A model generated the notes under the pieces. The model worked only from the letters and a program-made list of their open reading frames with translations. It ran no database searches and was not told the DNA's origin. Source: Halovivax asiaticus JCM 14624 (lineage in GTDB: Archaea; Halobacteriota; Halobacteria; Halobacteriales; Natrialbaceae). From it: a stretch of DNA of 39,946 nucleotides. This document shows, piece by piece, positions 3,228-32,350 of the stretch; position 1 is the stretch's first letter, and the number at the start of each line of letters is the position of its first letter. Position numbers and translations under genes: made by a program. The stretch is from NCBI RefSeq assembly GCF_000337515.1, contig NZ_AOIQ01000008.1, forward strand, positions 1 to 39,946, in the 5' to 3' direction.

Positions 3228-3302
3228 GGGCGCTTAGCTCAGTCTGGACAGAGTACTTGGCTTCGGACCAAGCTGTCGCGGGTTCAAATCCTGCAGCGCC
3301 CA
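3228..3302 (+). tRNA. tRNA-Arg (anticodon TCG)
   Basis: A full cloverleaf can be drawn by hand. The acceptor stem GGGCGCT (3228-3234) pairs perfectly with AGCGCCC (3295-3301). The D stem is GCTC/GAGT. The anticodon stem CTTGG (3256-3260) pairs with CCAAG (3268-3272) around loop CTTCGGA, giving anticodon TCG at 3263-3265, which reads Arg CGA codons. The T stem is GCGGG/CCTGC with loop TTCAAAT. The discriminator is A3302; CCA is not encoded. There is no intron. The gene is intact, and its 3' end serves as the integration site of the downstream island. Confidence 0.95.
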
Positions 3303-3489: not shown

Positions 3490-5988
3490 CTAGTCGCTCA
3501 AATTAGTATTTTCACGGTCCTGAGGTTCTAATGCCATTTGCTCCAGAATTACGCTTGGCTGTTGGAATAGTTCGAATTCCTGGCTCTGCCGATCGTAATC
3601 AATCATTCCTGTCGATACAGCAACTGCTTCGATGACGTTCGCGACTTTATTTTTGGGCACCTCTCTTTCAAGAATGCGTGCATCAGCTAACACCATCCCA
3701 ATAGAGGGCTTATTAACGCGGTTCTTCTTTTGTGCTTCCCAGCCAATTTGCAATATTTCTCCCATTATTCCTGGCTCAGGCGTCTCTTCCCACTTCTCTT
3801 CGACATATTCAACCAAATCATTGGGATGTTCATTGTTTGTGAGGATATCGATGATCTGCTGGTGAGTGAATCGACGACGTTTGTGCCGACGAAGCAGTTT
3901 CTCCATGGCCTCATTAGTCATTAGGGAAACATTCTCATCCATCTCACGGAGAAATGCACTATCCTTGTTTCCTTTCCCCTCAAGCTGAAACTCCCTCGCA
4001 ATCACAACAGCATGGTCACAGCCTGCCTCTTCTTTGTGCCGAGATACCGTTGCTTCCTTCGCATCTTCGTGATCAACAATGCCTTTGGAACCTTTCGCCT
4101 CAATAGAGAAGGACATATTTTCCTCACCAGCCTGTGGAATTGTCAGAATCGCATCTGGTTTGTCGGATGCACCTTCGTGTTGAATTGCAACACTGATATG
4201 TCGAAACACACCCACAACCACCTTCTCGTATCTAGTCCCACCTTCGAGTGATGCATCATGAATCTCGCTAATGAAGTACTCAATCTCGTCCCTGATGTAG
4301 CCCGCAGCACTTCTTAACGAATCGTCAGTGATCGACTTCGAGATATCCAAGAGATTATCTTCAACGCCATGATGTCCAAGATAGCCAGATGCCAGTAGAT
4401 TGCCTGCAACGGCCTCCCCGAAAACTTGCTTGAGTTCGTCAGACATCTTATTACTTTCTTCAAGAGATTTGAATAGCGGATGTTCTTCATTGATGAATAT
4501 GGTTTGATCTTCGGAGGAATAGTGGGTGATTTCGTCGGCCTCATCGTAGGAACTGAATTGGACATCGACCGAACCAAGACCTCCATCCGGGAATTGCCCT
4601 TTGGAAAGACCTCTGAGCCCTTGAGTAGCATCAAAAGGGGCTAAGGTATTAAGCCGGGTTCCAAAGGATCGTACCGCTTCTCCTGCCTCGGACTCCTCTT
4701 CAATCTCTTCCAGTTTCTGTTGGTCTAACCGATTTGCTTTTCTGCGACAGTAGTTGAAGAGACCCTGAATTACTTCCCTTGTGAGTTGAGTTTCAATATG
4801 CTCTTCGGACACCTGGTTCCGCTGGACAAGAATGGCATCATCTAGGTCGGGCACCTCAACTTCGGCAAGGAACCTTCCGAAGTGCCCATGGGGAGGATTA
4901 TCAAGCCCAAATAATGGATCTTCTCGATTGACTAACTTGCCTTTGACAGTGATTCGGAATCCATGGTCTTTTAGCCCCCTTTCTTTCCTTTTCCCTTTCG
5001 TCAAAAGATTCTCGTAGTAGGTAGCATTCCCGGTTACAGGCCCTAGCTCCGGAACTTTGAGGCAACGAACTTCTTCGTCAATGTTCTGGTAATCTGCTGT
5101 TTTGTCAACTGAGCACTCGTACTTCTCTTTGGGGACATCCTCTAAATCCCCATAATCCTCTTCTTCCCTCCAAAACGATTGGAGTCGGTTTTCGATATCA
5201 TCTCTAACGTCTTCTTCGATGAGATCTACATTGAAGCGTTCGTCAGTATCCGGTTCCCTCCTCGAGATTTTACTGTTATCTAACGACACTTTAAACTGGG
5301 AGGAAAGCGGAATAGAGGTGCGTATCATGTGGTGGAGGTATTGTGGTTTCAATGCACTCCCTGTATACTGTTCCTCGATATGGTCAACGATTGCGAGTGT
5401 CCAGGAATTCCATCCCTCCTCCCACGGATTTGGCAAATCCTTTCCTTCTAGGTACTCTCCTACGACATCCTCAGCTTCGTCGAAGCCCAATTTGTAAACA
5501 TTAAAACGTGGGGGGTTACCCGCACCACGCTCTTTGATCTCCTCTTCCGAGACGGAGATGATTCGAACAACGTTATCCTTTGCAGCAATGTGAGTGAGTT
5601 TTCGGCCTAGAGCGAATGCAGCAAGCTTGCCAACGCCAAACTTTCCGATTTGCTTTCGACCGTGCTTTACTCTATCTTCTCCGAGTTCCTCGGCTTTCGG
5701 ACTTTTTGCTACGCTCCAAAGCCATTCGAAACCATCCATATCCATAGAAGACCCATCATCGAGCACGGCAAGAAAATCAGTTCCTGACTCGGGAGTGTTC
5801 ACGTAGCACTCGTTCGCACCAGCGTCATAGCTGTTACAAACAAGTTCTTCGACTGCCTTTCGGGGATTGGTGTAGAGCTGTGAAGAAACTTGTCGAATGA
5901 TTTGGTAGCTAACATCAACCTCGATTTTTTCCTCTTCTTGTTCTCCCTCAGACGCAAAATCTTGTTCCAGATCGCGGGCAGTAGACAT
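3490..5988 (-). CDS. GHKL (Hsp90/MutL-like) ATPase fused to a PD-(D/E)XK-like nuclease domain
   Basis: The start ATG 5988 is preferred over 6018 because GGTGGTGAT lies directly upstream as a Shine-Dalgarno-like sequence; this gives 832 residues. The N-terminal 200 residues carry the GHKL ATPase boxes: E47-E-L-V-C-N52 with D55, the D77-D-G-S80 box and G115-K-F-G-V-G120. A long middle region (about 200-580) has no recognised domain. Near residues 585-660 there is P611-D612, then E630-A-K632, followed by a hydrophobic strand, matching the PD-(D/E)XK nuclease core. The gene is divergent from the helicase gene across 118 bp, suggesting a shared control region. Base composition is A+T-richer than the chromosome. 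Nuclease activity is inferred; the ATPase fold is well supported. Confidence 0.75.
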   Translation of the reverse strand: MSTARDLEQDFASEGEQEEEKIEVDVSYQIIRQVSSQLYTNPRKAVEELVCNSYDAGANECYVNTPESGTDFLAVLDDGSSMDMDGFEWLWSVAKSPKAEELGEDRVKHGRKQIGKFGVGKLAAFALGRKLTHIAAKDNVVRIISVSEEEIKERGAGNPPRFNVYKLGFDEAEDVVGEYLEGKDLPNPWEEGWNSWTLAIVDHIEEQYTGSALKPQYLHHMIRTSIPLSSQFKVSLDNSKISRREPDTDERFNVDLIEEDVRDDIENRLQSFWREEEDYGDLEDVPKEKYECSVDKTADYQNIDEEVRCLKVPELGPVTGNATYYENLLTKGKRKERGLKDHGFRITVKGKLVNREDPLFGLDNPPHGHFGRFLAEVEVPDLDDAILVQRNQVSEEHIETQLTREVIQGLFNYCRRKANRLDQQKLEEIEEESEAGEAVRSFGTRLNTLAPFDATQGLRGLSKGQFPDGGLGSVDVQFSSYDEADEITHYSSEDQTIFINEEHPLFKSLEESNKMSDELKQVFGEAVAGNLLASGYLGHHGVEDNLLDISKSITDDSLRSAAGYIRDEIEYFISEIHDASLEGGTRYEKVVVGVFRHISVAIQHEGASDKPDAILTIPQAGEENMSFSIEAKGSKGIVDHEDAKEATVSRHKEEAGCDHAVVIAREFQLEGKGNKDSAFLREMDENVSLMTNEAMEKLLRRHKRRRFTHQQIIDILTNNEHPNDLVEYVEEKWEETPEPGIMGEILQIGWEAQKKNRVNKPSIGMVLADARILEREVPKNKVANVIEAVAVSTGMIDYDRQSQEFELFQQPSVILEQMALEPQDRENTNLSD

Positions 5989-6071
5989 ATCACCACCAAC
6001 AAATTCTGGGTAAATCAAACTTTGGAGAAAATGTGGAAATCATTTCAGACCAGTCGGCGTCAAGAACACTC

Positions 6072-6077
6072 TTATTA
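6072..6077 (+). promoter_or_regulatory. TATA-like box for the helicase gene
   Basis: TTATTA lies about 32 bases before ATG 6107 in the divergent 118-bp gap. That distance fits an archaeal TATA element of a leaderless or nearly leaderless transcript, and no Shine-Dalgarno sequence precedes the start codon. Confidence 0.4.
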
Positions 6078-6106
6078 CGATACCAATAACGTATCTGTTA
6101 GTATCG

Positions 6107-8146
6107 ATGGCCTCTGACACCGCGACTTTCAAAGATCTCGACCTCCCTCGCGTACTCAATACCTCAAAAACAGACTTCGTCGACGAGTTCTACGAACCGC
6201 TCCTATCCCGCTCTGTCGAATACAAACGCGGTGTCGGATACTTCACCTCCAATTGGATGCAATCCGCCGCACGAGGAATCGCTGAACTAGCCGATAACGG
6301 CGGTGCTGCGAAATGGATCACCAGCCCAAAACTCACCGGAGAAGACTGGGAGGCCATCAAGAAAGGGGACGAAGCGCGCAGCGATGAAGTCCTACGGGAA
6401 ACTCTCGAAGAGACCATCAACGACCTCCGGTACGACTTGGAATACGACACTAGAAACGCCGTCGCTTGGATGATCGCAGACGGCCTCCTTGAAATCAAAT
6501 TCGCCATCCCCACTGAATCTCTCTCTGGTGGCGACTTCCACGACAAATTCGGAATCTTCTACGACGCAGACGGGAACTGCGTCGGGTTCCACGGCTCACA
6601 AAACGACAGCGAGCAAGCTCTTCGAAACTATGAAGCGTACAGTGTTGATTGCGACTGGCTCGGCGAACGGGATGCTGAAGGGGGAGACAGCCACGAACAA
6701 CGCTTCAAAGACCTCTGGGAAGGTCGAGATTCGAATGTCAGCACGTACTCTATCCCCGATGGCATTGCAGAGGACATCGCAGAACTACGCGACTACGACA
6801 ACCGTCCATACACACCCTTCGAGGAACCCGACAACTCTACGGTGAAGGCCAGCAACGAAATCACGCTCCGAGACTACCAGCGCGAAGCAGTCGATAACTG
6901 GTTCGAAAACGACTGCCATGGGCTCCTTCGGATGGCTACCGGCACCGGAAAGACATTCACCGCGCTTGCTGCGCTCGACGAGTACCTCGAACAGCAAGCC
7001 TCGCCGACACTCTGCGTGATTGCTGTACCGGTCACGCACCTTGCCAACCAGTGGGCCGAGGAGATGGAAATCTTCGGGTTCCCTTCCCCACGCTTCCTGT
7101 TCGGCACAGCCAACAGCGACTGGAAATCCGACCTGTCCAGAGTCGTTAGCAACATTAGGCTCGAGTTCCGTGATCGGGAGTTCATCATCACCACACACAG
7201 GACTCTCAGCGAGGAGTATTTCCGAGAGAAAATCAGCACTGTAGACGAAAATACCGTCCTCGTCGCTGACGAGGTTCACGGTCTCGGCTCCGAGGAACAA
7301 CGCAAGGGTCTCCTCGACGAATATGATGCCCGCCTCGGGTTGTCGGCCACACCGGAGCGCTACTACGACGAGGAGGGCACTGAGTTCCTGCTGAACTACT
7401 TCGGTGACATCGTGTACGAGTACTCCCTCTCAGACGCAGTCCCAGAGTATCTGACGCCATACGATTATGAGCCAATCATTGTTGAGATGACGCAGGAGGA
7501 ACTGGAGGAATACCGGAAAGAGTCCAAGAAACTCGCGAGTGCCGCAGCGAGCGAAGATATCGAAGAGGAGGTCGTTGAGCATCTCGCCATGAAGCGCGCG
7601 TCCATCGTGAAGAGCGCTGAGAACAAATATCGGCACTTACGACGCATCTTGCAGCGTATCGATGATCCGGATCACCTACTGGTGTACACGAACCCGGATC
7701 AAATCGATGACGTGCAGCAAATCCTGAACGATGAGGGTGTCTTCCATCATAAATTCACCTACCACGAGGACGAAGACCAGCGTGACGAGCTGTTGGAAGG
7801 GTTCGACGCTGGGGACTGGGATGCGCTTGTCGCGATGAAGTGCCTTGACGAGGGCGTAGACGTGCCGGCCACACGCCAAGCAATCCTGATGTCGAACAGC
7901 GGCAACCCCATGCAGTTCATCCAGCGACGAGGCCGAGTGCTTCGGCAAGCAGAGGGGAAAGACAAGGCAACCATCTACGATATGGTTGTTGTACCGTCGA
8001 AAAACCCATCCGAAGATATCGCAACGTCAGAGCGTAACCTCCTCGAAAAGGAACTAGATCGGTTCGCTGAATTCGCCGAGAATGCCAAAAACCGGCATAC
8101 GGCGCTGAATGTGATTGACGATATTCGCGTGAAGTACCGCATATAG
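6107..8146 (+). CDS. PLD-domain SF2 helicase (SSL2/Snf2-like)
   Basis: This 679-residue protein joins an N-terminal phospholipase-D-like domain (about 20-200) to an SF2 helicase (about 250-640). The PLD part shows one HxK motif, H145-D-K147, followed by a GSxN-type segment (HGSQND, 162-167). Helicase motifs are clear: Q-rich start LRDYQREA, Walker A A277-TGTGKT283, DEVH 388-391, SAT in LGLSATPER and motif VI Q606-R-R-G-R610. Such PLD-helicase proteins occur in several phage-defence loci and may translocate on and cut foreign DNA. It opens the seven-gene plus-strand operon and is divergent from the GHKL-nuclease gene. Whether the single PLD motif is catalytic, perhaps as a dimer, is unknown. 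Confidence 0.85.
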   Translation: MASDTATFKDLDLPRVLNTSKTDFVDEFYEPLLSRSVEYKRGVGYFTSNWMQSAARGIAELADNGGAAKWITSPKLTGEDWEAIKKGDEARSDEVLRETLEETINDLRYDLEYDTRNAVAWMIADGLLEIKFAIPTESLSGGDFHDKFGIFYDADGNCVGFHGSQNDSEQALRNYEAYSVDCDWLGERDAEGGDSHEQRFKDLWEGRDSNVSTYSIPDGIAEDIAELRDYDNRPYTPFEEPDNSTVKASNEITLRDYQREAVDNWFENDCHGLLRMATGTGKTFTALAALDEYLEQQASPTLCVIAVPVTHLANQWAEEMEIFGFPSPRFLFGTANSDWKSDLSRVVSNIRLEFRDREFIITTHRTLSEEYFREKISTVDENTVLVADEVHGLGSEEQRKGLLDEYDARLGLSATPERYYDEEGTEFLLNYFGDIVYEYSLSDAVPEYLTPYDYEPIIVEMTQEELEEYRKESKKLASAAASEDIEEEVVEHLAMKRASIVKSAENKYRHLRRILQRIDDPDHLLVYTNPDQIDDVQQILNDEGVFHHKFTYHEDEDQRDELLEGFDAGDWDALVAMKCLDEGVDVPATRQAILMSNSGNPMQFIQRRGRVLRQAEGKDKATIYDMVVVPSKNPSEDIATSERNLLEKELDRFAEFAENAKNRHTALNVIDDIRVKYRI

Positions 8147-8220
8147 TCCTTACAGCATCTCGACAAATTTTCGAGGGAATGTATTATCTTACCCTAGTTT
8201 CATGTATCGAGTAGTTACCC

Positions 8221-8424
8221 ATGAAGGACTCCGAAGTGCACTCGCTCATTTTGGATAAAACCGATGAGATCGAGGAAGATGAATACCGGTCATTCATTCG
8301 TGAAATTTTGAAACACGAACGAACGAAACTCGACCAGGAGCGTCCGAAGTACACCGACAAGTACCACCAGCTTGTGGAGGACTACGCAAACAACGAGTCG
8401 CTCGAAGAGTACACTGACGAATGA
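8221..8424 (+). CDS. Small charged protein of the helicase-ATPase locus
   Basis: A 67-residue, strongly acidic and helical-looking protein with no recognised domain. It begins 74 bp after the helicase stop and overlaps the next gene by ATGA (8421-8424), so it is almost certainly co-translated with the DndD-like ATPase. A TATA-like ATTATCTT about 35 bp upstream may give the second half of the operon its own promoter. Its size and position suggest an adaptor or partner of the ATPase; this is inference only. Confidence 0.7.
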   Translation: MKDSEVHSLILDKTDEIEEDEYRSFIREILKHERTKLDQERPKYTDKYHQLVEDYANNESLEEYTDE

Positions 8425-10394
8425 ACAACATCCAAATCTTCAAAATCGAACTCAACAACTACCGGCAGTTTCAGGGCGTCGAAGAAATTCCCCTCGAGAC
8501 CTCGCCCGATAAGCACATCAACGTCATCGAAGGCCAGAACGGCTCCGGGAAGTCAAACATCCTGAACGCCATCACGCTCTGCTTCTACGACGAAGAGCCA
8601 CACATCGACGAGAACGACGACCGTGGGCTCGGCGCCGACCCGATAGCCAATCTGAAGGAACTCGAGTCGGTCGACGTCGGAGACAGCGTGCGCGGACACA
8701 TCGAGATCACGCTCGGGAAAGACGAACCGCAGTACGTCTTCACCCGGAAGTTCCGTACGGCCAAGGTCGGGGAAGACGAGTACAACAGCGTCACCGAGGA
8801 TCTTCAACTTCGGCAACGGTTCGGAGCCGACTGGCAGAACGTGGAAAACCCGAACACACGTCTTCGCGAAATCCTCCCCACACGAGTACATCAATACTTC
8901 CTGTTCGACGGAGAGCAACTCGACAAATTCTTCGAAGAAGGATACACCCAACGCGTAAAAGACGCCGTTCTCGACGTCTCACACATCCAGTTACTCGAAC
9001 GTGGTATCGACCACCTCAACTCGGTACAAAGCGATCTCGAGAAGGAAGCATCCGACGTAGAGGGCAAACCCCAAGAACTCCACAAGGAGTACGAAGATGC
9101 TAAAGACGAACTTGATGAACTCAAAGAGGACGAAAAAGAACTCGAAGAGAACATCGAGGAAGCAAACGAGCAGATCGAGGGCATCGATAAGGAACTAGCC
9201 GACAGTACAAACCCTGACGTTCGCGAAAAGCAACAACGACGTCGATACCTTAACGAACGCCTCGAAGACCGGGAAGAGGAACTTCAGAACGCGCGTGAAG
9301 ACGCAGCTATTTCCCTCTCTCGTGCCGGGCCAGCCGCGTACAACCAAGACGCGCTCGAATACACCATCGAACAGTTCCGTGACCGCGAAGAGAGCGGCCA
9401 AGAGCCACCGGACATTCCGGAATGGTGGTTAGACCAACTTCTTGATGACGGCGAGTGCATTTGCGGTACTGACATCGACAGCGAGGAGGAAAAGCGCGAG
9501 CACCTCGAGCACTTCAAGGAGAAAATCACCGAGGCCGCATCCAACAGCGTGAATGGCCGACGAAAAGTCCAACGTACGCTCGATCGAGGCGACGACTTGG
9601 TGAGTGAAGCCAAGGAACGGAAGCGTCGTGTCGAGGACATCAAAGACGACATCGACGAAATCAACGAGGAATTGAGAGAGATCTCTGCCGAGTTGGAGAG
9701 CAAGACCATCCCAGATGACGTGGATGTTTCTGACTTGGAGAAACAACGCAAGCGCATCGACGGTCGCATCAAGGATATGCGGGAAGACCTCGGGCAGCTC
9801 CGAGGCAAAATCGAGCAGCAAATAGAGGTTGTGGAGGAGCGTAAGGACGACTGGCAGCGGGAGGTAGAACGGGAGAAGAAACACGAGACTATCCTTCGAA
9901 AGATCTCGTTCGTCGAGACCGCACGCGATAAGGTCGAGAGTATTGAGAAGGAGATTCTGGAGCAGGTTCGGACGGAAACTGAGAACTCGCTTCAGACGTT
10001 CTTCAACGACCTCATTTGGAAGGAAGAACCGTACGATATCGAACTGACTGACGACTACGAGGTGCACGTGTACGGCCCGAGCGGGGAGAAAAACCTTGGG
10101 TCTCTATCCGCAGGAGAACGCCAAGTGTTGGCGCTGTCGTTCATGAGTGCACTCGCACAAATCAGCGGGTTCAGCGCACCAATCCTTATCGACACACCAC
10201 TGGGTCGTATCTCCAGCAAACCGAAGAAGCGTATCGCACAGAACGTACCGAACTACCTCGAGGATACGCAGGTGACGTTCCTGATGACCGACGAGGAGTA
10301 CACCGACGAAGTGCGCGCGTTCCTGAAGAACAAGGTCGCGAACGAGTACCATTTGGACTACTCTGACGAAGTGACAGAGGTGCCATCTGCATGA
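8421..10394 (+). CDS. DndD-like SMC/Rad50-type ATPase
   Basis: The 657-residue protein begins with an SMC-type head: ELNNYRQF, then Walker A G38-QNGSGKS45. Residues 156-168 hold VHQYFLFDGEQLD, a stretch I associate with DndD and its relatives. Residues about 200-540 are charged coiled coil interrupted by a hook-like turn with C346-x-C348. The C-terminal head has the ABC signature LSAGERQ and Walker B APILIDTPLGR. DndD is the ATPase of DNA phosphorothioation systems, but no DndA, DndC or DndE homologue is seen here. It probably acts as a DNA-sensing or remodelling ATPase with the neighbouring helicase and methylase. ATGA overlaps at both ends tie it to its neighbours. Confidence 0.85.
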   Translation: MNNIQIFKIELNNYRQFQGVEEIPLETSPDKHINVIEGQNGSGKSNILNAITLCFYDEEPHIDENDDRGLGADPIANLKELESVDVGDSVRGHIEITLGKDEPQYVFTRKFRTAKVGEDEYNSVTEDLQLRQRFGADWQNVENPNTRLREILPTRVHQYFLFDGEQLDKFFEEGYTQRVKDAVLDVSHIQLLERGIDHLNSVQSDLEKEASDVEGKPQELHKEYEDAKDELDELKEDEKELEENIEEANEQIEGIDKELADSTNPDVREKQQRRRYLNERLEDREEELQNAREDAAISLSRAGPAAYNQDALEYTIEQFRDREESGQEPPDIPEWWLDQLLDDGECICGTDIDSEEEKREHLEHFKEKITEAASNSVNGRRKVQRTLDRGDDLVSEAKERKRRVEDIKDDIDEINEELREISAELESKTIPDDVDVSDLEKQRKRIDGRIKDMREDLGQLRGKIEQQIEVVEERKDDWQREVEREKKHETILRKISFVETARDKVESIEKEILEQVRTETENSLQTFFNDLIWKEEPYDIELTDDYEVHVYGPSGEKNLGSLSAGERQVLALSFMSALAQISGFSAPILIDTPLGRISSKPKKRIAQNVPNYLEDTQVTFLMTDEEYTDEVRAFLKNKVANEYHLDYSDEVTEVPSA

Positions 10395-10831
10395 GCGAAC
10401 AACAGAGCGAGAAGTACGAAGAAACCGACCCACGTCGTGACGTTCACATCGAGAAGGAACGACGGAGTCTGTACGAGGATCTCCGCACCAAGGAAACCTC
10501 ACCGTTCTACGAGGTGGATCTACACGACCTGTTCACGTTCGCGATGAGTTACGGTCGACGCAAAGCAGGACGAGTAGAACTGGAGGGTGAAGAACATGCG
10601 CTGTTCGGTCGTTCCTCGCTCCGAGAGGAACAGGAAGGTGTTATTGAGGCTGTGGCCGTCCGCGAAGAACGGTCTCTTGACGTTCTGCAAGACAAGAGGT
10701 TCGTGTACGAGATCGCTGAAGAGTTTGCGAACGGTGGGATTGAGAAGCTCCATGGCAGGGTTTTCGGCCCTGAAGACGACGCGTTGAGCGAATTGACGAT
10801 AGAAGTTGCGGAGGAATATGACTCAAAATAG
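10391..10831 (+). CDS. Unknown 146-aa protein translationally coupled to the DndD-like ATPase
   Basis: The start overlaps the ATPase stop by four bases (ATGA at 10391-10394). The protein is acidic, with an unstructured first 35 residues and then alternating helices; the stretch FYEVDLHDLFTFAMSYGRR is the most hydrophobic part. No catalytic motif or known fold was recognised. DndE of phosphorothioation operons is also a small protein next to DndD, but I see no specific similarity in sequence. A dedicated partner of the ATPase is the simplest reading. Confidence 0.75.
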   Translation: MSEQQSEKYEETDPRRDVHIEKERRSLYEDLRTKETSPFYEVDLHDLFTFAMSYGRRKAGRVELEGEEHALFGRSSLREEQEGVIEAVAVREERSLDVLQDKRFVYEIAEEFANGGIEKLHGRVFGPEDDALSELTIEVAEEYDSK

Positions 10832-10906
10832 ACAGTTCTCGGGGAAACTAGCGGCAGCAGAGCAAATACAGAATGTTCACAAGGGTGGAATGAGCCCGAT
10901 TAGACA

Positions 10907-12319
10907 ATGAGTAAGGATGGATCTGAATCACCGGAGGCTCAATTGACTATGGATCGGCTTGATCCAGGCGTTCGAGAAGTAATCTCGATCATCAGCGAAT
11001 ACCTCGACGACACCAACAATCTCTCGAGCCTCGAAGACTTCACCGATGGGGACTCTCCCTCGGCAAATACGCCCACACCATCTGTCTACAATCACCTTTC
11101 AGCAAATCCGGAACTCGCAAAGAAACTTCACGGGGGACTCAAAGATCAACTCAAACACCACGGAGAAGTCAACGTTGAGGACGTTCAAGAGCAACAAGGC
11201 CCAATCCCCGAGCCGAACGGAGAACTCCGCGCGGACATCGAGGAAGCGAACGCGACCCAAATCATCCCAAAGGATGCTGACGAGAACGCTAAAACGGAAG
11301 ACAGCACGCGAATCGATCTCCCCGAGAACTCCGTTGATCTGATCGTCACGTCACCACCATACTGGAAGAAACGTGATTATGGGATAGACGACCAGTTAGG
11401 CCAAGAATCAGAGCCTGACGAATACATCGATAATCTGGTTGCTGCACTCGAACAGTGGCGGCCCTTCCTTCGTCCCACAGGGTCGATCTTCCTCAACATT
11501 GGCGATACGTACCATAACAAGAGCCGTGTCGGTCTCCCAGGTCGCTTCGTGCCTGCCGCGCAAGAAGCTGGGTGGACAATCCGGAACGACATTATCTGGG
11601 CCAAAGACAACGGGATGCCGTCATCAGTGAAGGATCGGCTAGTCCCACGGCATGAACACATCATCCACCTCGTCTGGAACGACGACTACTACTACGACCT
11701 TCACGGCTACGCTGACGTCTACGGTAACGGATCGAACCCCGGAGACGTCTGGCGGATGAATCACGACCTCAACTCCGGTGGGCATCTCGCGCCGTTCTCC
11801 GACGAACTTGTGCAGCGCGCAATCACACTTGCGTGCCCACCAGCAGTATGCACCAAGTGCGGAGAACCCAGAACTCGTGACCGGAAACGAGGCCTCACCA
11901 ATCTCGATACTAGTCGTTCACAAGCGAAACGTGCTCTCGAGATTTACGAAGAGTCCGACCTGACAGAAGACCACCTGCGAGCAATCCAGGCAGTCGGTAT
12001 TTCTGACGCTGGCAAAGCAAAACAGTTCCAGGAGGGCGCTGGTGAAAACTCCAAAGAAGTACAGAAACTCGCAGACGAAGCGAAAGAAGTACTCGGCGGG
12101 TACTTCCGTGAATTCACGTTCCCACAGTGGACAACCGCAGGCTGGACTCACTGCGAATGTGAGGAACCGGACTATGAACCCGGTGTTGTGTTCGACCCAT
12201 TCGCTGGCTCAGGAACCACCATCAGGGCCGCTAATGAACTGCGCTACCACGCATGGGGAACTGACCTTGACACCTCCAACTTCGAAAAGAACCAGTCCTT
12301 AGCACGGTATTCCGAATAA
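10907..12319 (+). CDS. DNA methyltransferase, beta-class SPPY type (N4-cytosine or N6-adenine)
   Basis: This 470-residue protein has catalytic motif IV T148-S-P-P-Y-W153 before the AdoMet-binding motif I F429-D-P-F-A-G-S-G436, the circular order of beta-class amino-methyltransferases. SPPY is commoner in N4-cytosine than N6-adenine enzymes, so N4-methylcytosine is the likelier product. About 130 N-terminal residues form a poorly conserved extension. Between the motifs is an insertion of about 110 residues bounded by C315-x-x-C318 and C416-x-C418, a probable zinc-binding, target-recognition element. It lies 75 bp after the 146-aa gene and abuts the next gene (TAATG). In the locus it probably marks self DNA. 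Confidence 0.88.
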   Translation: MSKDGSESPEAQLTMDRLDPGVREVISIISEYLDDTNNLSSLEDFTDGDSPSANTPTPSVYNHLSANPELAKKLHGGLKDQLKHHGEVNVEDVQEQQGPIPEPNGELRADIEEANATQIIPKDADENAKTEDSTRIDLPENSVDLIVTSPPYWKKRDYGIDDQLGQESEPDEYIDNLVAALEQWRPFLRPTGSIFLNIGDTYHNKSRVGLPGRFVPAAQEAGWTIRNDIIWAKDNGMPSSVKDRLVPRHEHIIHLVWNDDYYYDLHGYADVYGNGSNPGDVWRMNHDLNSGGHLAPFSDELVQRAITLACPPAVCTKCGEPRTRDRKRGLTNLDTSRSQAKRALEIYEESDLTEDHLRAIQAVGISDAGKAKQFQEGAGENSKEVQKLADEAKEVLGGYFREFTFPQWTTAGWTHCECEEPDYEPGVVFDPFAGSGTTIRAANELRYHAWGTDLDTSNFEKNQSLARYSE

Positions 12320-12921
12320 TGCCAGAATACGTCCTGAAACCCAGCGTCGTCAAAGACTGCTTCTGGCGGCTAGTCGAGGCACCAATACACCGGTTGTTCT
12401 CGGGATACCTCTGCCTTCAACAGCAAACTGGGATCGAAGGGCAGACGAACGAACTCTCGTTCCCCTACAACGCCTTCTTCGACACGTATTTCGAGGTTCA
12501 AGATGGTGACAAACCATACCTCGTGCCATTCACTCAGGCGAAGAACCCCTCAGATTCGACGCTCTGGAACAACAAGAACGTGTCCGGCACTTATGCTCCA
12601 TCGTCAATCCGAATGAGCTCGCCACTGATGCAGGTGGCCACGCTCGAGAAAGAGGGGTACCACTCAGAATGGGGCCTGAACGAAGATCACTGGAAACTCG
12701 CTCGGTTACATCTTTGTGACGGCGAGCAAATCCCGATCGAATCCCTCGCCGCCTACCTCTTCCGGGATTTCTCGTTCGAGACTGACGAACCGTCAGCGTA
12801 CACGCTTGTATCGGCTTTCGCAGAAGAGTTCCACTACGACATCGGAGGTAGTGCATTCGCGCATCTGTATGAGACAGGCGACTCAAACATCACAGCGGAG
12901 TCCTTCGAACACTATGACTAA
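12319..12921 (+). CDS. Unknown 200-aa protein between methylase and deaminase-like gene
   Basis: Starts on the last base of the methylase stop (TAATG) and overlaps the next gene by eight bases, so it belongs to the same translational unit. The sequence is rich in aromatic residues (FWRLVEAP, FFDTYFEV, SEWGL) with no motif I recognise: no PD-(D/E)XK, HNH or PLD signature. The globular, aromatic-rich character suggests a folded structural or binding protein rather than a regulator. Its position beside a modification enzyme makes a specificity or restriction role possible, but this is not shown. Confidence 0.75.
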   Translation: MPEYVLKPSVVKDCFWRLVEAPIHRLFSGYLCLQQQTGIEGQTNELSFPYNAFFDTYFEVQDGDKPYLVPFTQAKNPSDSTLWNNKNVSGTYAPSSIRMSSPLMQVATLEKEGYHSEWGLNEDHWKLARLHLCDGEQIPIESLAAYLFRDFSFETDEPSAYTLVSAFAEEFHYDIGGSAFAHLYETGDSNITAESFEHYD

Positions 12922-13405
12922 CCAGAAACAAACGAAACTGGGTGCACAGAACTCGATCCTGTCTGCTGCAAGAGTCCGTCGACTGTCCCCTGAGCAGCTC
13001 GGGATCAGCGCTCCGGGCCAGCAGTCCGACCAGATTGATGACTCTGATCAGGGTGAAAAGTTGCATTCTGCGGCGGTTGACGCTGTTGGTGACGATGAGG
13101 ACGGGATTGGCGCTGCAGTTCTAACGAGTGACGAAACCCTGCATACGGGTATTCCAATAAAAGGGGAGGGGTGGGGAACTCATGCTATTGAACTAGCCGT
13201 TTCGAAGGCTGTCTCGAATGGCGCTGACGGAATTTCGAGTGTTGCTGTGTACTCGGTTGATGGCCAGTCCGGGCTTTGCGGTCGATGTCTGCAAGCATTG
13301 GCAGACACTCGTGATGGTGAAGTAACAATTGAAGTACTCAGTTCCGAAGGCTTCGAGAACAGTTTCGAATTGACCGACCTCACACCGTGGGTATCACAAA
13401 GTTAG
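12914..13405 (+). CDS. Divergent cytidine-deaminase-fold protein
   Basis: ATG 12914 lies inside the end of the previous gene and gives 163 residues. Residues 62-125 follow the cytidine-deaminase core: a beta strand, H90-A, the helix ELAVSKAVSNGA, a beta strand VAVYSV and C122-G-R-C125-L-x-x-L. The zinc ligands H90, C122 and C125 are present with spacing (32) close to that of bacterial CDAs. In the family the catalytic Glu is two residues after the first ligand ([HC]-A-E). Here that place is Ile92 and a Glu occurs one residue later (E93). The Pro usually before the first Cys is Leu. The first 50 residues are a separate extension. It may be an altered deaminase or a zinc-binding pseudoenzyme ending the operon. 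Confidence 0.72.
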   Translation: MTNQKQTKLGAQNSILSAARVRRLSPEQLGISAPGQQSDQIDDSDQGEKLHSAAVDAVGDDEDGIGAAVLTSDETLHTGIPIKGEGWGTHAIELAVSKAVSNGADGISSVAVYSVDGQSGLCGRCLQALADTRDGEVTIEVLSSEGFENSFELTDLTPWVSQS

Positions 13406-14233: not shown

Positions 14234-17197
14234 CTAGCCGTCAATGGGGGTTCGGTCAAATTTTGGCGAGTCACCAATCTTCCGCTCCAACAGGTCTGCA
14301 ATGTCCTCATTTGCAGTCGCGAAGATCACTTGCCGGTCTTGCTCACCATCTCGGCCTGTTGCCAGCTCAATGAGCAAGTTGAAGAATGAAATCGTGTTAA
14401 TGTCATCCAGATGTGCGAACGGCTCATCTAGTAGCATCACTGGCGGCGCATGTGCGTGGGTGAGATTGTTCGTCACGAAGATTGCGAGTGCTAAGGCAGC
14501 CCGTTGGCCTGAACTCATATCGGTGATCGGCTCTGGCTTCGGGTCGTCCTTCCCCCGGCGAATCACACGAACTTCGTCATCGTCATTGAGTTGCACCTCG
14601 TTGAATTGATACGGGCGTTGGAACGCCTGAAATAGCGTCGTTATTGCCGACATGTGTTCCCGGACATATGCTGTGAGGTTCTCGTCACCTCCCGCTTTGT
14701 CGAAGACGGTTTGTAATCGCTCAATGCCGTCTTCATAACCTTCCTTCCTGTGTTGATGATGATCCAGATCAGTTTGCTTTTTCTCGATTTGCTCGTTAAT
14801 CTGCGCGACCGACTCAACTACGACCGCATCGCTTTGGAACTCCGACTTTGCGGTGTGCAGCACTGTTCGATCAGCCGCCACACGAAGCTCGTTCTGTTGG
14901 CGTTCTCCGAGTGCGTGATCCTCGAGGATTTGAATGCCAGCTTCAAGCTCTATACGCCGATCTTTTAGTCGCTGAATGGCTTTCGGAACTTCATCAATCG
15001 GTCTAGCGAAGTCTTCGACGGATTTCTCCAGTGACTCCAACTTCTCTGTGACTTCCTGATGGCTATTCCCCACTAATTCAATAGCTTCTCCACCGCTAAG
15101 ATTCCAGAGCGGGTTTTGTCGGATCGCCTCACCAAACCTGGTGACGTGAGCGTCGGACACGCTTGGTAAAGATTCAAAACTTGTTCGTTCAAACACTCCC
15201 CAGAAGTCTTCAGCACGACAAACATCACCAAATTGGTTCTCGAATTTGTCAGTTACCAATGCCCAAGTGGGTCGGTCCAGAACTTCGAGTGCATTTTTAA
15301 TGTGTTCGATATCCGCTTGTAGCTGATCGGGGACGCCCGATTCCGAAGAAAGAAGGTCCTCTGGCTGCTCTCGATTTCGAATCGACGCTTCTGTTTGCTG
15401 AACATAACAAGCTGGACAGTGTGCAACCTCGTTAGTAATATCGAGATACTCCTCAGTCTGTGAGCGGATCTCGTCTAAGAGCTCCTCACGCCTCTCCTGT
15501 AGGTCAGAAATCTCTCGAATCGCCTCTCTCTTCTCGGAGAGTCTTTCGAGCTCTTCCTTGAGAACAGCGGTTACTCGTGTTCGCCATTTTTTGAGCGACT
15601 CCTCTGACTCAGGACCTTCATCAGAGAGTGCCTTCTCTATGGCGTGGAGATCTGAAATATCGAATTTTTCAGTTGAGAGGATAGTTGCAACGAATGCGAC
15701 AGTTGACGGCGCTTCTCCCCAGCGTGTACTATTGAGTTCTTTCTGAAGCTCTCTTAGCTGCTTCTGCTTATTTTGCCACTCTTCAATATCCTCAAGCTTG
15801 TCAATCGCTGTTTCTGTTCGGTTTCTCTCGGTAGCCAGTTCGGATGCTAACGTTTCAGGCATCTTTGGCTCATCGCTGCTCAGGCCCACACTCTTAAGGC
15901 TCTCGTCAAGCCTAGCAACTCGTTCACCCCAGGTTGTCCAGGTATGAACCCACTCTTCGTTGGAGTCCCCACTTCCTTCGTCGTCATGGCGGCGCGGCGG
16001 AGGATTCGGAATGAGCTCTCTCATCCCTGGCGATAGTTCTTCGCGAGCTGCCCGTGCAGTAGAAAACAAGTTCTCTGCTCGATCAGCCTTATTCTCCAAT
16101 TCTCTGATTTCGGCAGTCAACTCCGCAATCCGCTTTTCTTCCTGTTCGATCCGGCTATCGGCTTCTTTTACCAACTCTCTTTTTTCACTACGGGCCTTCG
16201 ACAACTGCTCACCGTACAACGAACGCCGGATTGTTTGTTCAATATCTAGGTCCGTATCGAGTTCTGCGAGTCGCGTAGTCGACCCTGCCTCGTGATAATT
16301 CACATGATAGAACTCGGTGTGACGTGTTGCCTTCCTCTCTGGTCGAAAGCCGTACCAAGCGCTGATCCGATCAGCCACGTCGGACGTGTCATTCGAAAGC
16401 CGGACCGGTCCGTCTCCGTTGCCTGTGAGGGTTACATTCAAGTCACGATATTTCCAGCTCCGCTGAGTAGTGTCACCTCGGACTTGCCCAACCATTCCAA
16501 GCGTGGCCGCATCGAGAAGACTAGTCTTGCCACTCCCATTCCGTCCGTAGAGAAGTGTGAACGGTTTTGCATCCAGCGTTCTCTTGCTAGCCGGCCGGCG
16601 GAAGTCTGGCCCCAATTCTACTGAGTCAATAATGCCCTCAGGTCCCGTCGGCAAATTCGGTTTCGTGGGTCCAGCCTCCAAATCGCTTCCTTTACGTAGT
16701 TTTTCAAGCCGCTCATCCCGGTTGGTTGAGTCGGTCTCAAAGAGAAGTCCTAGATCTGCTTCGAGAATCTCCTGAATAAGTTCCCCCCGGTTGAACTCGA
16801 CTTCCATCGATTCGAGATCTCGAATAACTGTTTGGAGCGGTTGCAGAAACGCATCCAACGAGTCGACGGCGACAAACCGTCGTATCGCAAATCGAGTATT
16901 AGACTCGAAAGTTGTACGCCTTGATTCGTCTATGTCCATCTCTTCGGGATATGCCCAGAAGAGCTGAATGTTCCACTGATTCGGAATCTCATCATCATAG
17001 AACAGGACCTCGAGCTGGCGGTTATCCTCCGTTTCGAGCTCGTCCAAATCATCATCTGGTTGTATAAACCGAATAAGGATCGTCTCGTCATCGTACCCTC
17101 TTCGAGGATGTGTGATTTTGTAGAGTTCGTCCGAACCCTCTACCTGTTCTACGTGTTCTTCATCGTATAGCCGTTCAAGGCGATTGTATCCGGTCAT
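14234..17197 (-). CDS. Rad50/SMC-like ATPase of a two-gene defence-like operon
   Basis: A 987-residue protein. The first 200 residues are an unfamiliar N-terminal domain. Walker A then appears at G218-RNGSGKT225, followed by long coiled coils (about 330-420, 480-580, 690-830) and a zinc-hook-like C-P-A-C near residue 593. The ABC signature SSGQRAALAL is near 894 and Walker B VMLLDEPFAHLDD near 919. The start codon overlaps the stop of the nitrilase-like gene (ATGA, 17194-17197), so the two are translationally coupled. SMC ATPases paired with a variable enzyme domain are typical of Lamassu-like and Rad50-type defence systems, in which the ATPase senses foreign DNA ends or structures. The N-terminal domain before the P-loop is unusual for Rad50. 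Confidence 0.85.
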   Translation of the reverse strand: MTGYNRLERLYDEEHVEQVEGSDELYKITHPRRGYDDETILIRFIQPDDDLDELETEDNRQLEVLFYDDEIPNQWNIQLFWAYPEEMDIDESRRTTFESNTRFAIRRFVAVDSLDAFLQPLQTVIRDLESMEVEFNRGELIQEILEADLGLLFETDSTNRDERLEKLRKGSDLEAGPTKPNLPTGPEGIIDSVELGPDFRRPASKRTLDAKPFTLLYGRNGSGKTSLLDAATLGMVGQVRGDTTQRSWKYRDLNVTLTGNGDGPVRLSNDTSDVADRISAWYGFRPERKATRHTEFYHVNYHEAGSTTRLAELDTDLDIEQTIRRSLYGEQLSKARSEKRELVKEADSRIEQEEKRIAELTAEIRELENKADRAENLFSTARAAREELSPGMRELIPNPPPRRHDDEGSGDSNEEWVHTWTTWGERVARLDESLKSVGLSSDEPKMPETLASELATERNRTETAIDKLEDIEEWQNKQKQLRELQKELNSTRWGEAPSTVAFVATILSTEKFDISDLHAIEKALSDEGPESEESLKKWRTRVTAVLKEELERLSEKREAIREISDLQERREELLDEIRSQTEEYLDITNEVAHCPACYVQQTEASIRNREQPEDLLSSESGVPDQLQADIEHIKNALEVLDRPTWALVTDKFENQFGDVCRAEDFWGVFERTSFESLPSVSDAHVTRFGEAIRQNPLWNLSGGEAIELVGNSHQEVTEKLESLEKSVEDFARPIDEVPKAIQRLKDRRIELEAGIQILEDHALGERQQNELRVAADRTVLHTAKSEFQSDAVVVESVAQINEQIEKKQTDLDHHQHRKEGYEDGIERLQTVFDKAGGDENLTAYVREHMSAITTLFQAFQRPYQFNEVQLNDDDEVRVIRRGKDDPKPEPITDMSSGQRAALALAIFVTNNLTHAHAPPVMLLDEPFAHLDDINTISFFNLLIELATGRDGEQDRQVIFATANEDIADLLERKIGDSPKFDRTPIDG

Positions 17198-18927
17198 AGC
17201 GTGATCTCCTCCAATCCATCGGTTGCATCGACTCGCTCTGGATTACGAACCATATTAGAGACGTCTTCATATCCGGCCAGTGTCTTCGCTTTACTGGAGC
17301 TGAAATTAGAAGTCAGCGCAACTGGCTTGAAATTGACTCCATCTACTCGCAACCACTCTACGAACCAGCGAGCTCGGTCGATCTCACTGTTAGGTGTTGA
17401 CTTGGGAAGCGTCGTCAAACAGATGGGAACCTGTTCAACCCGATATTCTGCGTTGACCGGAACGTCGGTTCGGTCGAAGGCGCTCTTGAGGACAATATCG
17501 GCTTCATCCTCTGCAAATGAGAGTGCTTCCATTAGCCGTTCGGCAATCGTTTTAGGCGCATCCCTCGTACTTGGCGTGATCTCACCGGCACCGCGTCTGC
17601 GTGGGTGATTCTCCAGGAGATGTCCTAATTCTTCAGACATCTCGCCGTTGAGGGATTCAACAGATTTCCAAGAAACTTTCTGGTTGGTGGGAAATTTTTC
17701 TGGAAGACTGTCCGCTTCGATTTCTGCGCGAAGGAGTGCGGTCAACAGCTCTCGGTTGAGTGGGGTCGTGTTAAGCTGCTCTCGCCACTCCTTGCAGGGA
17801 TCCGGTTCAGGCGCCGGATAGACCGGGGTTTTGTGTTGGTACTCATCTGCAGCTGTATCGAAGACAGCTGTCATTGAGACTTTGAGATCCGCCATCATCG
17901 CCGACCCACTGGGCGTTCCGTGGTTTGTTTTTCGTCGGAATATGACTGTACTCACGATGTCATCTGGGATGAGGCAGAGATACTCACATCCGATGTCCGG
18001 CTGGGTCGCTACCAACCCTCCTCGCTCGTATGAGTCATTGTACTCTGATTCCAGCGTTGTTGAATCATCTGTTGTAGTGTAGACTCCAGAATAGCCAAAG
18101 GGGCCGATCGGTGGCACACTCCCCCAGTTTGCGACAATACACGACACCTGGGCTTCGGTCTCAAAGAGTTCCTTTCGATAGTTGACCCACGTTTTGTTGA
18201 ATGGATCGGGGTTGCATTGGACATGGACAGAATACGAGGGACCGTCTTGGCAGAATGTAAGAACCTCATTCTTGAGTTCTCTATGCATTACATCGGAGCA
18301 TGTCCACGGAACAACGGCAGCGCCACCGAAAAAGCGGAAGCCCCAGATCTTTGTGCCCTCACAGAGCCTCTTTAGCTCGACATCATTCGCACGGCTGCTC
18401 ATGTGCTTGTTCTTAAATTGGACGAATAGCGCGTCTTTGTCCTCACCACGCCTCGCATTCGCCGCTATTGGGATGATTGTCGGTGTGACGAATTCCCCCG
18501 GTTCGTCTGGCACGGCGGGGCCCATATCAGTTTCACCTTCCGCCGAATAGCAGTCGTACTCCTCATTCAATTCGGCGAGCCGGGTCGCCATTTTGTCTAC
18601 TTGAACGGGGGCGCATCCAAGGACAAATAGCGGACCCGTATCCGCGAAGAGGAAGTCGTCATGATCCTCGACCCAATCGATATTGTAGGCCCACTCGGGC
18701 GCTGCTGCGAGGTGGGCATCTTCTGCGGACGCCCGCTGGAGGAAGGATTTGGCTTTCGAATGCATACCGACTGGTTTCGGAAAGACAGTGATGTCTTCCA
18801 CCCTGCCGCGTGGCTGCCAAATCGTAACGATATTTTGCGAGTCGTCCTCTGCAAATACCTCATACCGCTCATCATCAAATTCAGTGAGAATTCTTCCAGC
18901 TTCGCGGATTCGGTCGGATTCAGACAT
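17194..18927 (-). CDS. Nitrilase-fold (carbon-nitrogen hydrolase-like) protein, probable effector
   Basis: The 577-residue protein shows the nitrilase Glu-Lys-Cys triad: E78 in AAAPEWA, K172 or K174 in QFKNKHMSS, and C210 in VPWTCSDVM, each after a hydrophobic strand. It also has the later strand CIVANWGS that follows the catalytic Cys in this superfamily. Nitrilase-fold enzymes hydrolyse amides or nitriles or form glutaminase domains. The C-terminal 190 residues are unrecognised. It is the first gene of an operon with the SMC-like ATPase. Upstream TATATTAT at about -30 and no Shine-Dalgarno indicate a leaderless transcript. An effector role, for example cleaving an amide-containing metabolite when triggered by the ATPase, is inference. 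Confidence 0.72.
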   Translation of the reverse strand: MSESDRIREAGRILTEFDDERYEVFAEDDSQNIVTIWQPRGRVEDITVFPKPVGMHSKAKSFLQRASAEDAHLAAAPEWAYNIDWVEDHDDFLFADTGPLFVLGCAPVQVDKMATRLAELNEEYDCYSAEGETDMGPAVPDEPGEFVTPTIIPIAANARRGEDKDALFVQFKNKHMSSRANDVELKRLCEGTKIWGFRFFGGAAVVPWTCSDVMHRELKNEVLTFCQDGPSYSVHVQCNPDPFNKTWVNYRKELFETEAQVSCIVANWGSVPPIGPFGYSGVYTTTDDSTTLESEYNDSYERGGLVATQPDIGCEYLCLIPDDIVSTVIFRRKTNHGTPSGSAMMADLKVSMTAVFDTAADEYQHKTPVYPAPEPDPCKEWREQLNTTPLNRELLTALLRAEIEADSLPEKFPTNQKVSWKSVESLNGEMSEELGHLLENHPRRRGAGEITPSTRDAPKTIAERLMEALSFAEDEADIVLKSAFDRTDVPVNAEYRVEQVPICLTTLPKSTPNSEIDRARWFVEWLRVDGVNFKPVALTSNFSSSKAKTLAGYEDVSNMVRNPERVDATDGLEEITL

Positions 18928-21885: not shown

Positions 21886-22092
21886 ATGGAGCGGATCCAA
21901 TCGGAGGCAGTTTCCGGCCGTGTTTCGGCAGACGTGGTAGCGCAAATCGAACGAGCAACCGAAGAGACCGATCTCACCAAATCCCAACTCGTGGCTCGGG
22001 CCGTCGAGTACTACATAGAAAAGAATCCAGACGACATCAGTTCGTTCTACCCCGACGGATCGCTCGCGGAATTCGTAGAGGGGCTCTGCTGA
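21886..22092 (+). CDS. Ribbon-helix-helix protein next to integrase
   Basis: From ATG 21886 this is 68 residues; a TTG at 21871 would add five. The layout is a short N-terminal beta strand (EAVSGRVSADVVAQIE) followed by two helices (TDLTKSQLVARAVEYYIEKN), the CopG/Arc/MetJ DNA-binding fold. Its stop overlaps the integrase start by one base (TGATG at 22090-22094), so the two are translated together. It is probably the regulator or excision factor of this integrase module; this role is inferred from position. Confidence 0.75.
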   Translation: MERIQSEAVSGRVSADVVAQIERATEETDLTKSQLVARAVEYYIEKNPDDISSFYPDGSLAEFVEGLC

Positions 22093-23665: not shown

Positions 23666-24547
23666 TCACCCGAGTTCCTTGAGTTCGTCTGCAAATTCGT
23701 GTTTTGAGAGTCCATCAGTGTCGAGCAAGTCGACCATTTCTGCTCGACGGACGGCCCTTTCCGTGAAGTCGATCCACAGTTCTTCGTGCTGTTCTGCATA
23801 CTTTCTCCACCGCTCACTTCGCTGAAGATCTAACTCGTATTCTTCGAGAGGGATTTCGATATCGTGCTTTCGCACGAGTACGTCACAACCGAACTCCTCG
23901 AGATACTTGAACCGACCACCTTTTCGTCGAACCGTCAGCAGTCTCTTTGATTCGTTGATGTAGTCGTTGACCCACTCCATCCAGTCATACTCGTCAGCCC
24001 CATCGGGCTGAATTGCTGTCTCTGGCATCGAAAACTCCGGATCCACGCGCTTTAGATAGAGTTGGCTCATCCCGATAGCCGTTCGGTGGTTCGCGTTGGG
24101 AAGGGCGTGCTTGAGAATCAAGTTTGATGCCAGTCGCCCGGCTACCTCAACCGCCGTGCCGTTCCAGTCGACCTGATTGAGCGCGGGCTCAATCTCTTCG
24201 GCTGCGATGTTCTTGTACGCTTGCACCCGGTTTCCTTCCTCCTGGTAGTTCTCGTCGAGAACGTTTCTGAACACCTCAACCAGCCTGGTCGCGATGACGC
24301 CGTTCGCTGGGCCCATCGAATCGATATATTCGACGAGATCGTAGTCTATCTCGTCTGCGGCTCCGCTTGCACCGGACGCAGTATAGACGACGTAGACGGT
24401 CCGATCTAACTCGAAAGATTCGACCTTGACCGATTTGTGAGCTTCATACCCGACGATGCGGTCCCCTACAGCTTCCAGTTCAGGGGTGACGAAGTCCACC
24501 GAGAACTGCTTGTCCAGGTCGTGGTGGTAGGGAACCCGGTTTGTCAT
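23666..24547 (-). CDS. Fic/Doc-like protein with altered metal-binding residue
   Basis: The 293-residue protein contains H147-A-L-P-N-A-N-H-R-T156, which aligns residue by residue with the Doc/Fic active site (HPFxDGNxRT). His147, Asn153, Arg155 and Thr156 are kept. The acidic residue that binds Mg2+ is Asn151 and the following Gly is Ala152. The sequence before it (about 70-145) is helical, as in the Fic fold, and the C-terminal 100 residues form an extra charged helical domain. Fic and Doc proteins modify target proteins with AMP or phosphate and often act as toxins. The Asn change may alter or reduce activity, although PNANHRT-type motifs appear familiar in archaeal members. Confidence 0.75.
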   Translation of the reverse strand: MTNRVPYHHDLDKQFSVDFVTPELEAVGDRIVGYEAHKSVKVESFELDRTVYVVYTASGASGAADEIDYDLVEYIDSMGPANGVIATRLVEVFRNVLDENYQEEGNRVQAYKNIAAEEIEPALNQVDWNGTAVEVAGRLASNLILKHALPNANHRTAIGMSQLYLKRVDPEFSMPETAIQPDGADEYDWMEWVNDYINESKRLLTVRRKGGRFKYLEEFGCDVLVRKHDIEIPLEEYELDLQRSERWRKYAEQHEELWIDFTERAVRRAEMVDLLDTDGLSKHEFADELKELG

Positions 24548-29192: not shown

Positions 29193-29194
29193 CC

Positions 29195-32307: not shown

Positions 32308-32350
32308 CCTGCAGCGCCCATCCGTTTTCCGAACGAACTGGATCCAAGTG
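32308..32350 (+). repeat. Right attachment site (duplicate of tRNA-Arg 3' end)
   Basis: CCTGCAGCGCCCAT at 32308-32321 is identical to the 3' part of the tRNA-Arg gene. Looser similarity continues through CGTTTT, ACGAAC and ATCCAAG to about 32348. The rest of a tRNA is not present. It is interpreted as attR of the island. Confidence 0.75.

What the first reader, a model, noticed from the sequence alone, without database searches (positions are those of the whole stretch)
3490..13405. Eight-gene helicase-ATPase-methylase locus with unusual extra parts
A divergent GHKL-ATPase/PD-(D/E)XK protein faces a tight operon of PLD-helicase, 67-aa protein, DndD-like ATPase, 146-aa protein, SPPY methyltransferase, unknown 200-aa protein and deaminase-fold protein. 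ATGA, TAATG and 8-bp overlaps link most of the genes. Helicase plus methylase plus ATPase recalls the published Hma type of defence locus. The DndD-like gene recalls phosphorothioation systems, but DndA, DndC and DndE are not seen. The GHKL-nuclease, the two small coupled proteins and the deaminase-like protein are not part of any scheme I can name exactly. The set may be a variant or an undescribed system for self-marking and attack.
Basis: partly seen in the sequence, partly recalled or inferred. Interest (0 to 1): 0.85.

Follow-up and report, generated by a model that had tools for sequence, protein, structure and literature searches.

The report
Methylase-paired Pbe defence locus in haloarchaea
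This is a mobile antiviral gene cluster of salt-loving archaea in which a known defence engine (PbeABCD) is teamed with a DNA methylase instead of the usual DNA sulphur-marking enzymes, together with two conserved extra proteins, one of which is a cytidine deaminase that has lost its catalytic residue in every copy examined.

Summary
The eight genes are real. The core is not Hma: it is PbeABCD, i.e. the CxC ABC-ATPase/DndE system (HKD-SF2 helicase, small protein, CxC ATPase, DndE-like protein). No DndC was found in the genome; the marking gene is instead an SPPY-type (N4/N6) DNA methylase, a pairing already predicted in the literature. New here: (1) the 200-aa and deaminase-like genes accompany the methylase; PbeA-B-C-D-methylase-200aa-deaminase is conserved in 11 haloarchaeal genomes from five families, and PbeCs with this trio fall on one side of one tree branch. 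(2) The trio also occurs without Pbe, and a 200-aa relative sits with methylase plus McrBC, so it is an exchangeable cassette. (3) The deaminase-like protein lost its catalytic glutamate in 13/13 copies (kept in 16/16 housekeeping relatives) but keeps its zinc ligands; three copies are fused to the DNA-wrapping domain of gyrase A. (4) The GHKL-nuclease is optional (4 of 11 Pbe loci). The locus lies in a ~29-kb integrated island at tRNA-Arg. Best reading: a methylation-marked Pbe restriction system whose 200-aa and pseudo-deaminase proteins are recognition/coupling subunits. Confidence: core about 0.9; role of the two extra proteins about 0.4.

The parts
3490..5988 (-). GHKL-ATPase with C-terminal PD-(D/E)XK-like nuclease motif; optional accessory, divergent from pbeA
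   Evidence: PF13589 1e-15; BbrUII-like N-terminus only; motifs ELVCNSYDAGA, GKFGVGK and KPDAIL..FSIEAKG aligned in 8 homologues, the nuclease motif degraded in one; adjacent to the module in G379, G291, G343, G220, absent from the other trio loci
6107..8146 (+). pbeA: HKD (phospholipase D-like) nuclease fused to SF2 helicase
   Evidence: PADLOC PbeA 6.6e-235; TIGR04095 2e-137; FHDKFGIF..GSQN motif conserved
8221..8424 (+). pbeB-like 67-aa protein
   Evidence: position and homologues at 32-79% identity in the same slot of other Pbe loci
8421..10394 (+). pbeC: CxC-type ABC ATPase
   Evidence: PADLOC PbeC 1022 bits; CxC zinc-hook in 12/12 homologues, Walker A and ABC signature
10391..10831 (+). 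pbeD: DndE-like partner of PbeC
   Evidence: TIGR04062 1e-8, under the curated cut-off; homologue next to DndCDEA in L114
10907..12319 (+). SPPY-type (N4-cytosine or N6-adenine) DNA methyltransferase with Cys-pair insert
   Evidence: PF01555 8e-37; PADLOC MTase_II 1.5e-122; TSPPYW and FDPFAGSGTT
12319..12921 (+). X200: 200-aa methylase-associated protein, proposed recognition/adaptor subunit
   Evidence: no family in any library; 13 other genomes, next to an N6_N4 methylase in most
12914..13405 (+). Zinc-ligand-retaining pseudo-cytidine deaminase with ~40-aa disordered N-terminal tail
   Evidence: Foldseek to cytidine deaminases 2e-8; tail disordered in model; catalytic Glu replaced in 13/13, H-C-C ligands kept
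3228..3302 (+). tRNA-Arg(tcg), integration site of the island
32308..32321 (+). 14-bp repeat of the tRNA 3' end (CCTGCAGCGCCCAT), presumed distal att site beside an integrase gene (31179-32321, -)

Best explanation
A mobile PbeABCD (CxC ABC-ATPase/DndE) defence system that marks self DNA with a methylated base, probably N4-methylcytosine, instead of a phosphorothioate. Shown by sequence: membership of the Pbe core, absence of DndC, conserved co-inheritance with methylase-X200-pseudo-deaminase, loss of the deaminase's catalytic Glu, gyrase-CTD fusions, and exchange of the cassette between restriction engines. Inferred: (1) the methylase with X200 and the pseudo-deaminase marks host DNA at a specific site; (2) X200 reads the site, doing in trans what the N-terminal reader domain of McrB does in McrBC-type systems; (3) the tail of the pseudo-deaminase docks on X200 or the methylase, and its deaminase fold (sometimes with a gyrase-type DNA-wrapping propeller) grips DNA or a flipped cytosine rather than deaminating it; (4) PbeC-PbeD scan DNA and PbeA (helicase plus HKD nuclease) blocks or cuts unmarked viral DNA, PbeB being a control subunit; (5) the GHKL-nuclease, where present, adds a second cut.
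For: PADLOC/NCBIfam matches to PbeA and PbeC; PbeA 56% identical to one beside canonical DndCDEA in L114; no DndC in own genome; PbeA-B-C-D-MT-X200-CDA order in relatives; trio-bearing PbeCs on one side of a branch; X200/PbeC co-occurrence 11 of 13, p 2e-14, or 2e-9 after collapsing near-copies; trio without Pbe in G007/G220; MT-X200-McrB-McrC in L105 and X200-McrB-McrC in L104, with McrB cut down to AAA plus a short tail; tail motif shared by CDA and the L104 McrB, the only non-CDA hit above inclusion; CDA catalytic Glu lost 13/13 versus 0/16 in housekeeping CDAs; GyrA_C fusions. Literature: all four pbe genes are needed for defence (PMC6459918) and pairing with methylases is predicted (PMC6459918; PMC10853773).
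Against: No experiment on any member of this variant. X200's structure prediction failed (pLDDT 36), so its role rests on gene context. The tail similarity to McrB is weak (E 0.009) and barely visible in L105. The methylated base is not established: the methylase is N4/N6 class and the closest solved structures include both adenine and N4-cytosine enzymes. Near-identical loci inflate simple counts. The published Pbe system did not cut viral DNA (PMC6459918).
Confidence: 0.6

Rival explanations
1. The deaminase-like protein is an active effector that destroys (d)CTP or deaminates phage DNA, as in nucleotide-depletion defence, with the rest sensing infection.
For: Clear cytidine deaminase fold and zinc ligands.
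Against: Catalytic Glu replaced by I/V/L in 13/13 members while 16/16 haloarchaeal housekeeping relatives keep HAE; it travels with methylases with or without Pbe.
Confidence: 0.08
2. Two independent systems lie side by side: a solitary Pbe module (perhaps needing Dnd in trans or inactive) and a methylase-X200-CDA-GHKL restriction-modification cassette.
For: The trio with GHKL occurs without Pbe on the Salarchaeum plasmid; trio and GHKL co-occur (p 2e-6); solitary Pbe is known (PMC6459918).
Against: Pbe-trio order kept across five families, and trio-bearing PbeCs group together; no DndC in the genome; GHKL not found at 7 of 11 Pbe-trio loci.
Confidence: 0.22
3. All eight genes form one new system in which the GHKL-nuclease is an essential partner.
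For: Divergent adjacency in the window and in G379 (79% identity); next to Pbe in G291/G343.
Against: Not found near 7 of 11 Pbe-trio loci; in L116 and L118 it stands beside other methylases without Pbe.
Confidence: 0.07

Closest known systems
PbeABCD / DndCDEA-PbeABCD (Xiong 2019, PMC6459918)
   Same: PbeA, B, C and D all present in the published order; PbeA 56% identical to one beside DndCDEA in L114
   Different: DndC not detected in the genome; methylase, X200 and pseudo-deaminase take the place of the sulphur-marking genes
CxC ABC-ATPase-DndE systems with cytosine methylases (NAR 2024, PMC10853773)
   Same: CxC ATPase, DndE-like partner, HKD-SF2, small protein and methylase; the authors mention an MTaX1 gene that may be X200 (could not be checked)
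   Different: the words deaminase and GHKL do not occur in that paper's main text; pseudo-deaminase, gyrase-CTD fusion and cassette exchange are not described there
McrBC-type R-M with methylases (LlaJI, described in PMC12707154)
   Same: an X200 relative sits between methylase and a small McrB plus McrC in L105
   Different: here the partner is Pbe and the tail-bearing protein is a pseudo-deaminase
BbrUII/HgiDII GHKL-containing restriction enzymes; GHKL (MORC/paraMORC) proteins in R-M loci (PMC2292703)
   Same: GHKL N-terminus, nuclease motif, methylase neighbourhood
   Different: only 48.7 bits against a 550-bit cut-off for BbrUII/HgiDII; optional in this locus

Membership tests
PbeABCD (CxC ABC-ATPase/DndE system) | PbeA: HKD nuclease fused to SF2 helicase | tested here: met
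   PADLOC PbeA 6.6e-235; HKD-type motif aligned
PbeABCD (CxC ABC-ATPase/DndE system) | PbeB: ~60-70 aa small protein between A and C | tested here: met
   67 aa, homologous small protein in the same slot of other Pbe loci
PbeABCD (CxC ABC-ATPase/DndE system) | PbeC: ABC ATPase with CxC zinc hook | tested here: met
   1022 bits; CIC at 346-348, CxC conserved 12/12
PbeABCD (CxC ABC-ATPase/DndE system) | PbeD: DndE cognate | tested here: inconclusive
   TIGR04062 E 1e-8 but under cut-off; homologous to PbeD beside DndCDEA in L114; RHH fold not tested
DndCDEA-PbeABCD phosphorothioation defence | DndC sulphurtransferase in locus or genome | tested here: not met
   TIGR03183: no match in the whole genome
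DndCDEA-PbeABCD phosphorothioation defence | defence depends on phosphorothioate | not testable with these tools
   needs wet-lab work
Hma (PADLOC 2021) | HmaB is an m5C methyltransferase | tested here: not met
   methylase is PF01555 N4/N6 class; Hma definition from PMC8565338
Hma (PADLOC 2021) | matches HmaA/B/C profiles | tested here: inconclusive
   best PADLOC hits are PbeA, PbeC and MTase_II with no Hma profile among the 25 shown per protein; full lists not printed
Active cytidine deaminase | H/C-A-E catalytic Glu plus CxxC zinc ligands | tested here: not met
   zinc ligands present, Glu absent in 13/13
BbrUII/HgiDII restriction enzyme | full-length match to NF050001 | tested here: not met
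   48.7 bits vs 550 cut-off, N-terminal 130 aa only

The most novel reading that the evidence does not exclude
X200 is a detachable target-reading subunit that serves different restriction engines (Pbe, McrBC, a GHKL pair) through a short N-terminal docking tail on its partner, and the pseudo-deaminase is a repurposed cytidine-binding fold that senses the (un)methylated cytosine on wrapped DNA.
Probability: 0.25. Interest if true: 0.75.

Novelty: new variant of a known kind. Interest (0 to 1): 0.5.

Why it matters
It gives a concrete, conserved haloarchaeal example of the predicted but, as far as I could find, untested idea that Pbe defence can run on base methylation instead of phosphorothioate. 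It adds two proteins not described in the papers I could read, including a deaminase fold turned non-catalytic in a restriction setting and fused in some species to a gyrase DNA-wrapping domain. Because the cassette swaps between restriction engines, deleting single genes would show directly which part carries specificity.

Tried and rejected
Hma: rejected, the methylase class does not fit and the best profiles are Pbe. Dnd proper: rejected, no DndC in the genome. Active deaminase effector: rejected on the catalytic residue. AlphaFold of X200 gave a useless model (pLDDT 36) and its profile had no credible PDB relative (best E 0.14). X200 was not found in phages or viral contigs. X200 of L105 and the window CDA had no plasmid match at the thresholds used. 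Bacterial McrB relatives on plasmids carry long N-terminal regions; no X200 partner was annotated next to them, so the docking idea rests on two haloarchaeal loci. Equating X200 with MTaX1 could not be tested: the only held paper naming that domain in this sense gives no sequence.
Full report
Setting. The window is the start of contig 8 of a 3.24-Mb, 24-contig genome; the named close relatives of the locus are all haloarchaea. A tRNA-Arg lies at 3228-3302. The 14 bases around its 3' end (CCTGCAGCGCCCAT) recur at 32308-32321, at the 5' end of a tyrosine-integrase-like gene (31179-32321, -), and G+C is 0.47-0.56 for most of the stretch between, against 0.64-0.66 in the outer flanks. The locus is therefore cargo of a ~29-kb integrated island. 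Among the 391 genomes searched, the four other members of the genus lack X200, close PbeC and GHKL.

The observation.

The core is PbeABCD. Gene 2 matches PADLOC PbeA over its length (6.6e-235) and gene 4 PbeC (1022 bits). NCBIfam gives TIGR04095 'DNA phosphorothioation system restriction enzyme' for gene 2 and TIGR04062 'dnd_assoc_4' for gene 5, both below curated cut-offs. Gene 4 has the CxC zinc hook, conserved in 12 of 12 homologues, and gene 2 the HKD-type motif. Genes 3 and 5 have homologues in the same slots of other Pbe loci, matching the published 66-aa PbeB and 152-aa PbeD (PMC6459918), which a later paper reinterprets as a small disordered protein and a DndE cognate (PMC10853773). 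In L114 the same four genes lie next to DndC, DndD, DndE and a DndA/IscS-type desulphurase. The window genome has no DndC. Elsewhere, for example L106, related Pbe loci carry D12 and N6_N4 methylases. So in haloarchaea the Pbe engine is found beside at least three kinds of marking module.

The conserved trio. The 200-aa protein (X200) matches no family in Pfam, PADLOC or NCBIfam and occurs in 13 other genomes of 391. In the 12 of these with a full copy of the same type, the deaminase-like gene follows directly. Eleven genomes including this one have PbeA-B-C-D, methylase, X200 and CDA; in G101 the methylase is displaced, in G362 the locus is split over two contigs, and G219 has its methylase beyond the CDA gene together with a second X200 fragment. 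Hosts include Halobiforma nitratireducens, Halogranum rubrum, Haloarcula amylovorans, Halorubrum salsamenti and Natronomonas aquatica, and a Haloprofundus plasmid. PbeCs with the trio lie on one side of a single branch (support 86/81; 100% of bootstrap trees). Co-occurrence of X200 with the close PbeC clade is 11 of 13 (p 2e-14; 2e-9 with the near-identical loci collapsed).

The trio is exchangeable. In G007 and on the Salarchaeum japonicum plasmid (G220) methylase-X200-CDA stands without Pbe, behind a 685-aa weakly GHKL-like protein and a 247-aa protein. In G227 (L105) a distant X200 (24% identity) lies between an N6_N4 methylase and a 308-aa McrB plus McrC; in G219 (L104) an X200 fragment at a contig end lies before a 311-aa McrB and McrC. 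Those McrBs have only 58-64 residues before Walker A, whereas the window's own McrB has 595 and the plasmid relatives inspected are 543-869-aa proteins (lengths from the coordinates). This suggests, but does not show, that X200 supplies the reading function in trans.

The deaminase-like protein. Sequence and predicted structure agree on a cytidine deaminase fold (Foldseek best 1ux1, E 2e-8; residues 41-160 well predicted, 1-40 disordered). Housekeeping relatives in these genomes read HAEE...PCGMC; all 13 members here read H-x-[ILV]-E...CxxC: zinc ligands kept, catalytic Glu lost. From general knowledge, the ADAT3 subunit of tRNA deaminases is a comparable zinc-binding pseudo-deaminase. In G101, G118 and G219 it is fused to a gyrase A C-terminal propeller (PF03989 with five stretches, down to 4e-59, for G101 and G118; GyrA profile for G101; G219 by alignment), a DNA-wrapping domain in gyrase. 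A profile of its N-terminal tail found, apart from CDA proteins, one hit above inclusion in the ORFs of loci L092-L130 and the window: the N-terminus of the X200-linked McrB in L104 (E 0.009). That is a lead only.

The GHKL protein. It has intact GHKL motifs and a D...ExK stretch conserved in most homologues, degraded in L117. It is next to the module in this genome, G379, G291, G343 and G220, but was not found at the other Pbe-trio loci; elsewhere it stands near a C5-methylase (L118) or beside another methylase-like gene (L116). It is an optional accessory; co-occurrence with X200 is above chance (5 of 9, p 2e-6), though defence genes cluster anyway and some loci are near-copies.

Interpretation. 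Best reading: an R-M-like Pbe system marked by base methylation, with X200 and the pseudo-deaminase as recognition/coupling subunits of the marking cassette. The Pbe identity is firm; the marking base, X200's role and the pseudo-deaminase's ligand are inferred. The main rival is two neighbouring systems, which the conserved joint order and the PbeC tree make less likely. The concept (Pbe plus methylase) is published as a prediction (PMC6459918, PMC10853773); the X200/pseudo-deaminase cassette, its fusions and its exchange were not found in the papers I could read, but most subscription papers, and apparently the 2020 ABC-ATPase survey that named MTaX1, were not available.

Noticed in passing
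3228-32321: A ~29-kb integrated island between tRNA-Arg and a 14-bp repeat of its 3' end at an integrase gene; carries several defence-like loci and a second integrase (about 22092-23192).
   Followed up: partly
14234-18927 (-): Two-gene operon (4-bp overlap): 987-aa SMC/Rad50-like ATPase with weak LmuB/mad3 matches and a 577-aa protein with no family in three libraries; possible uncharacterised defence pair.
   Followed up: partly
26295-30673 (+): McrB-like (965 aa, long N-terminal region) plus weakly McrC-like gene pair.
   Followed up: partly
23666-24547 (-): 293-aa protein with a Fic/Doc-like HALPNANHRTA motif read by eye; no Pfam match.
   Followed up: no
L105:7176-11618 and L104:6521-9069: X200 relatives linked to McrB and McrC (with an N6_N4 methylase in L105); the McrBs lack a long N-terminal reader region.
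   Followed up: partly
L095:12130-12321: Apparent remnant of a second deaminase-like gene resembling the G007/G220 type, downstream of the intact one: possible trace of cassette replacement.
   Followed up: no
L102:11515-12864 and L095:12345-13712: A ~450-aa family of unknown function recurs beside the trio in otherwise different loci.
   Followed up: no
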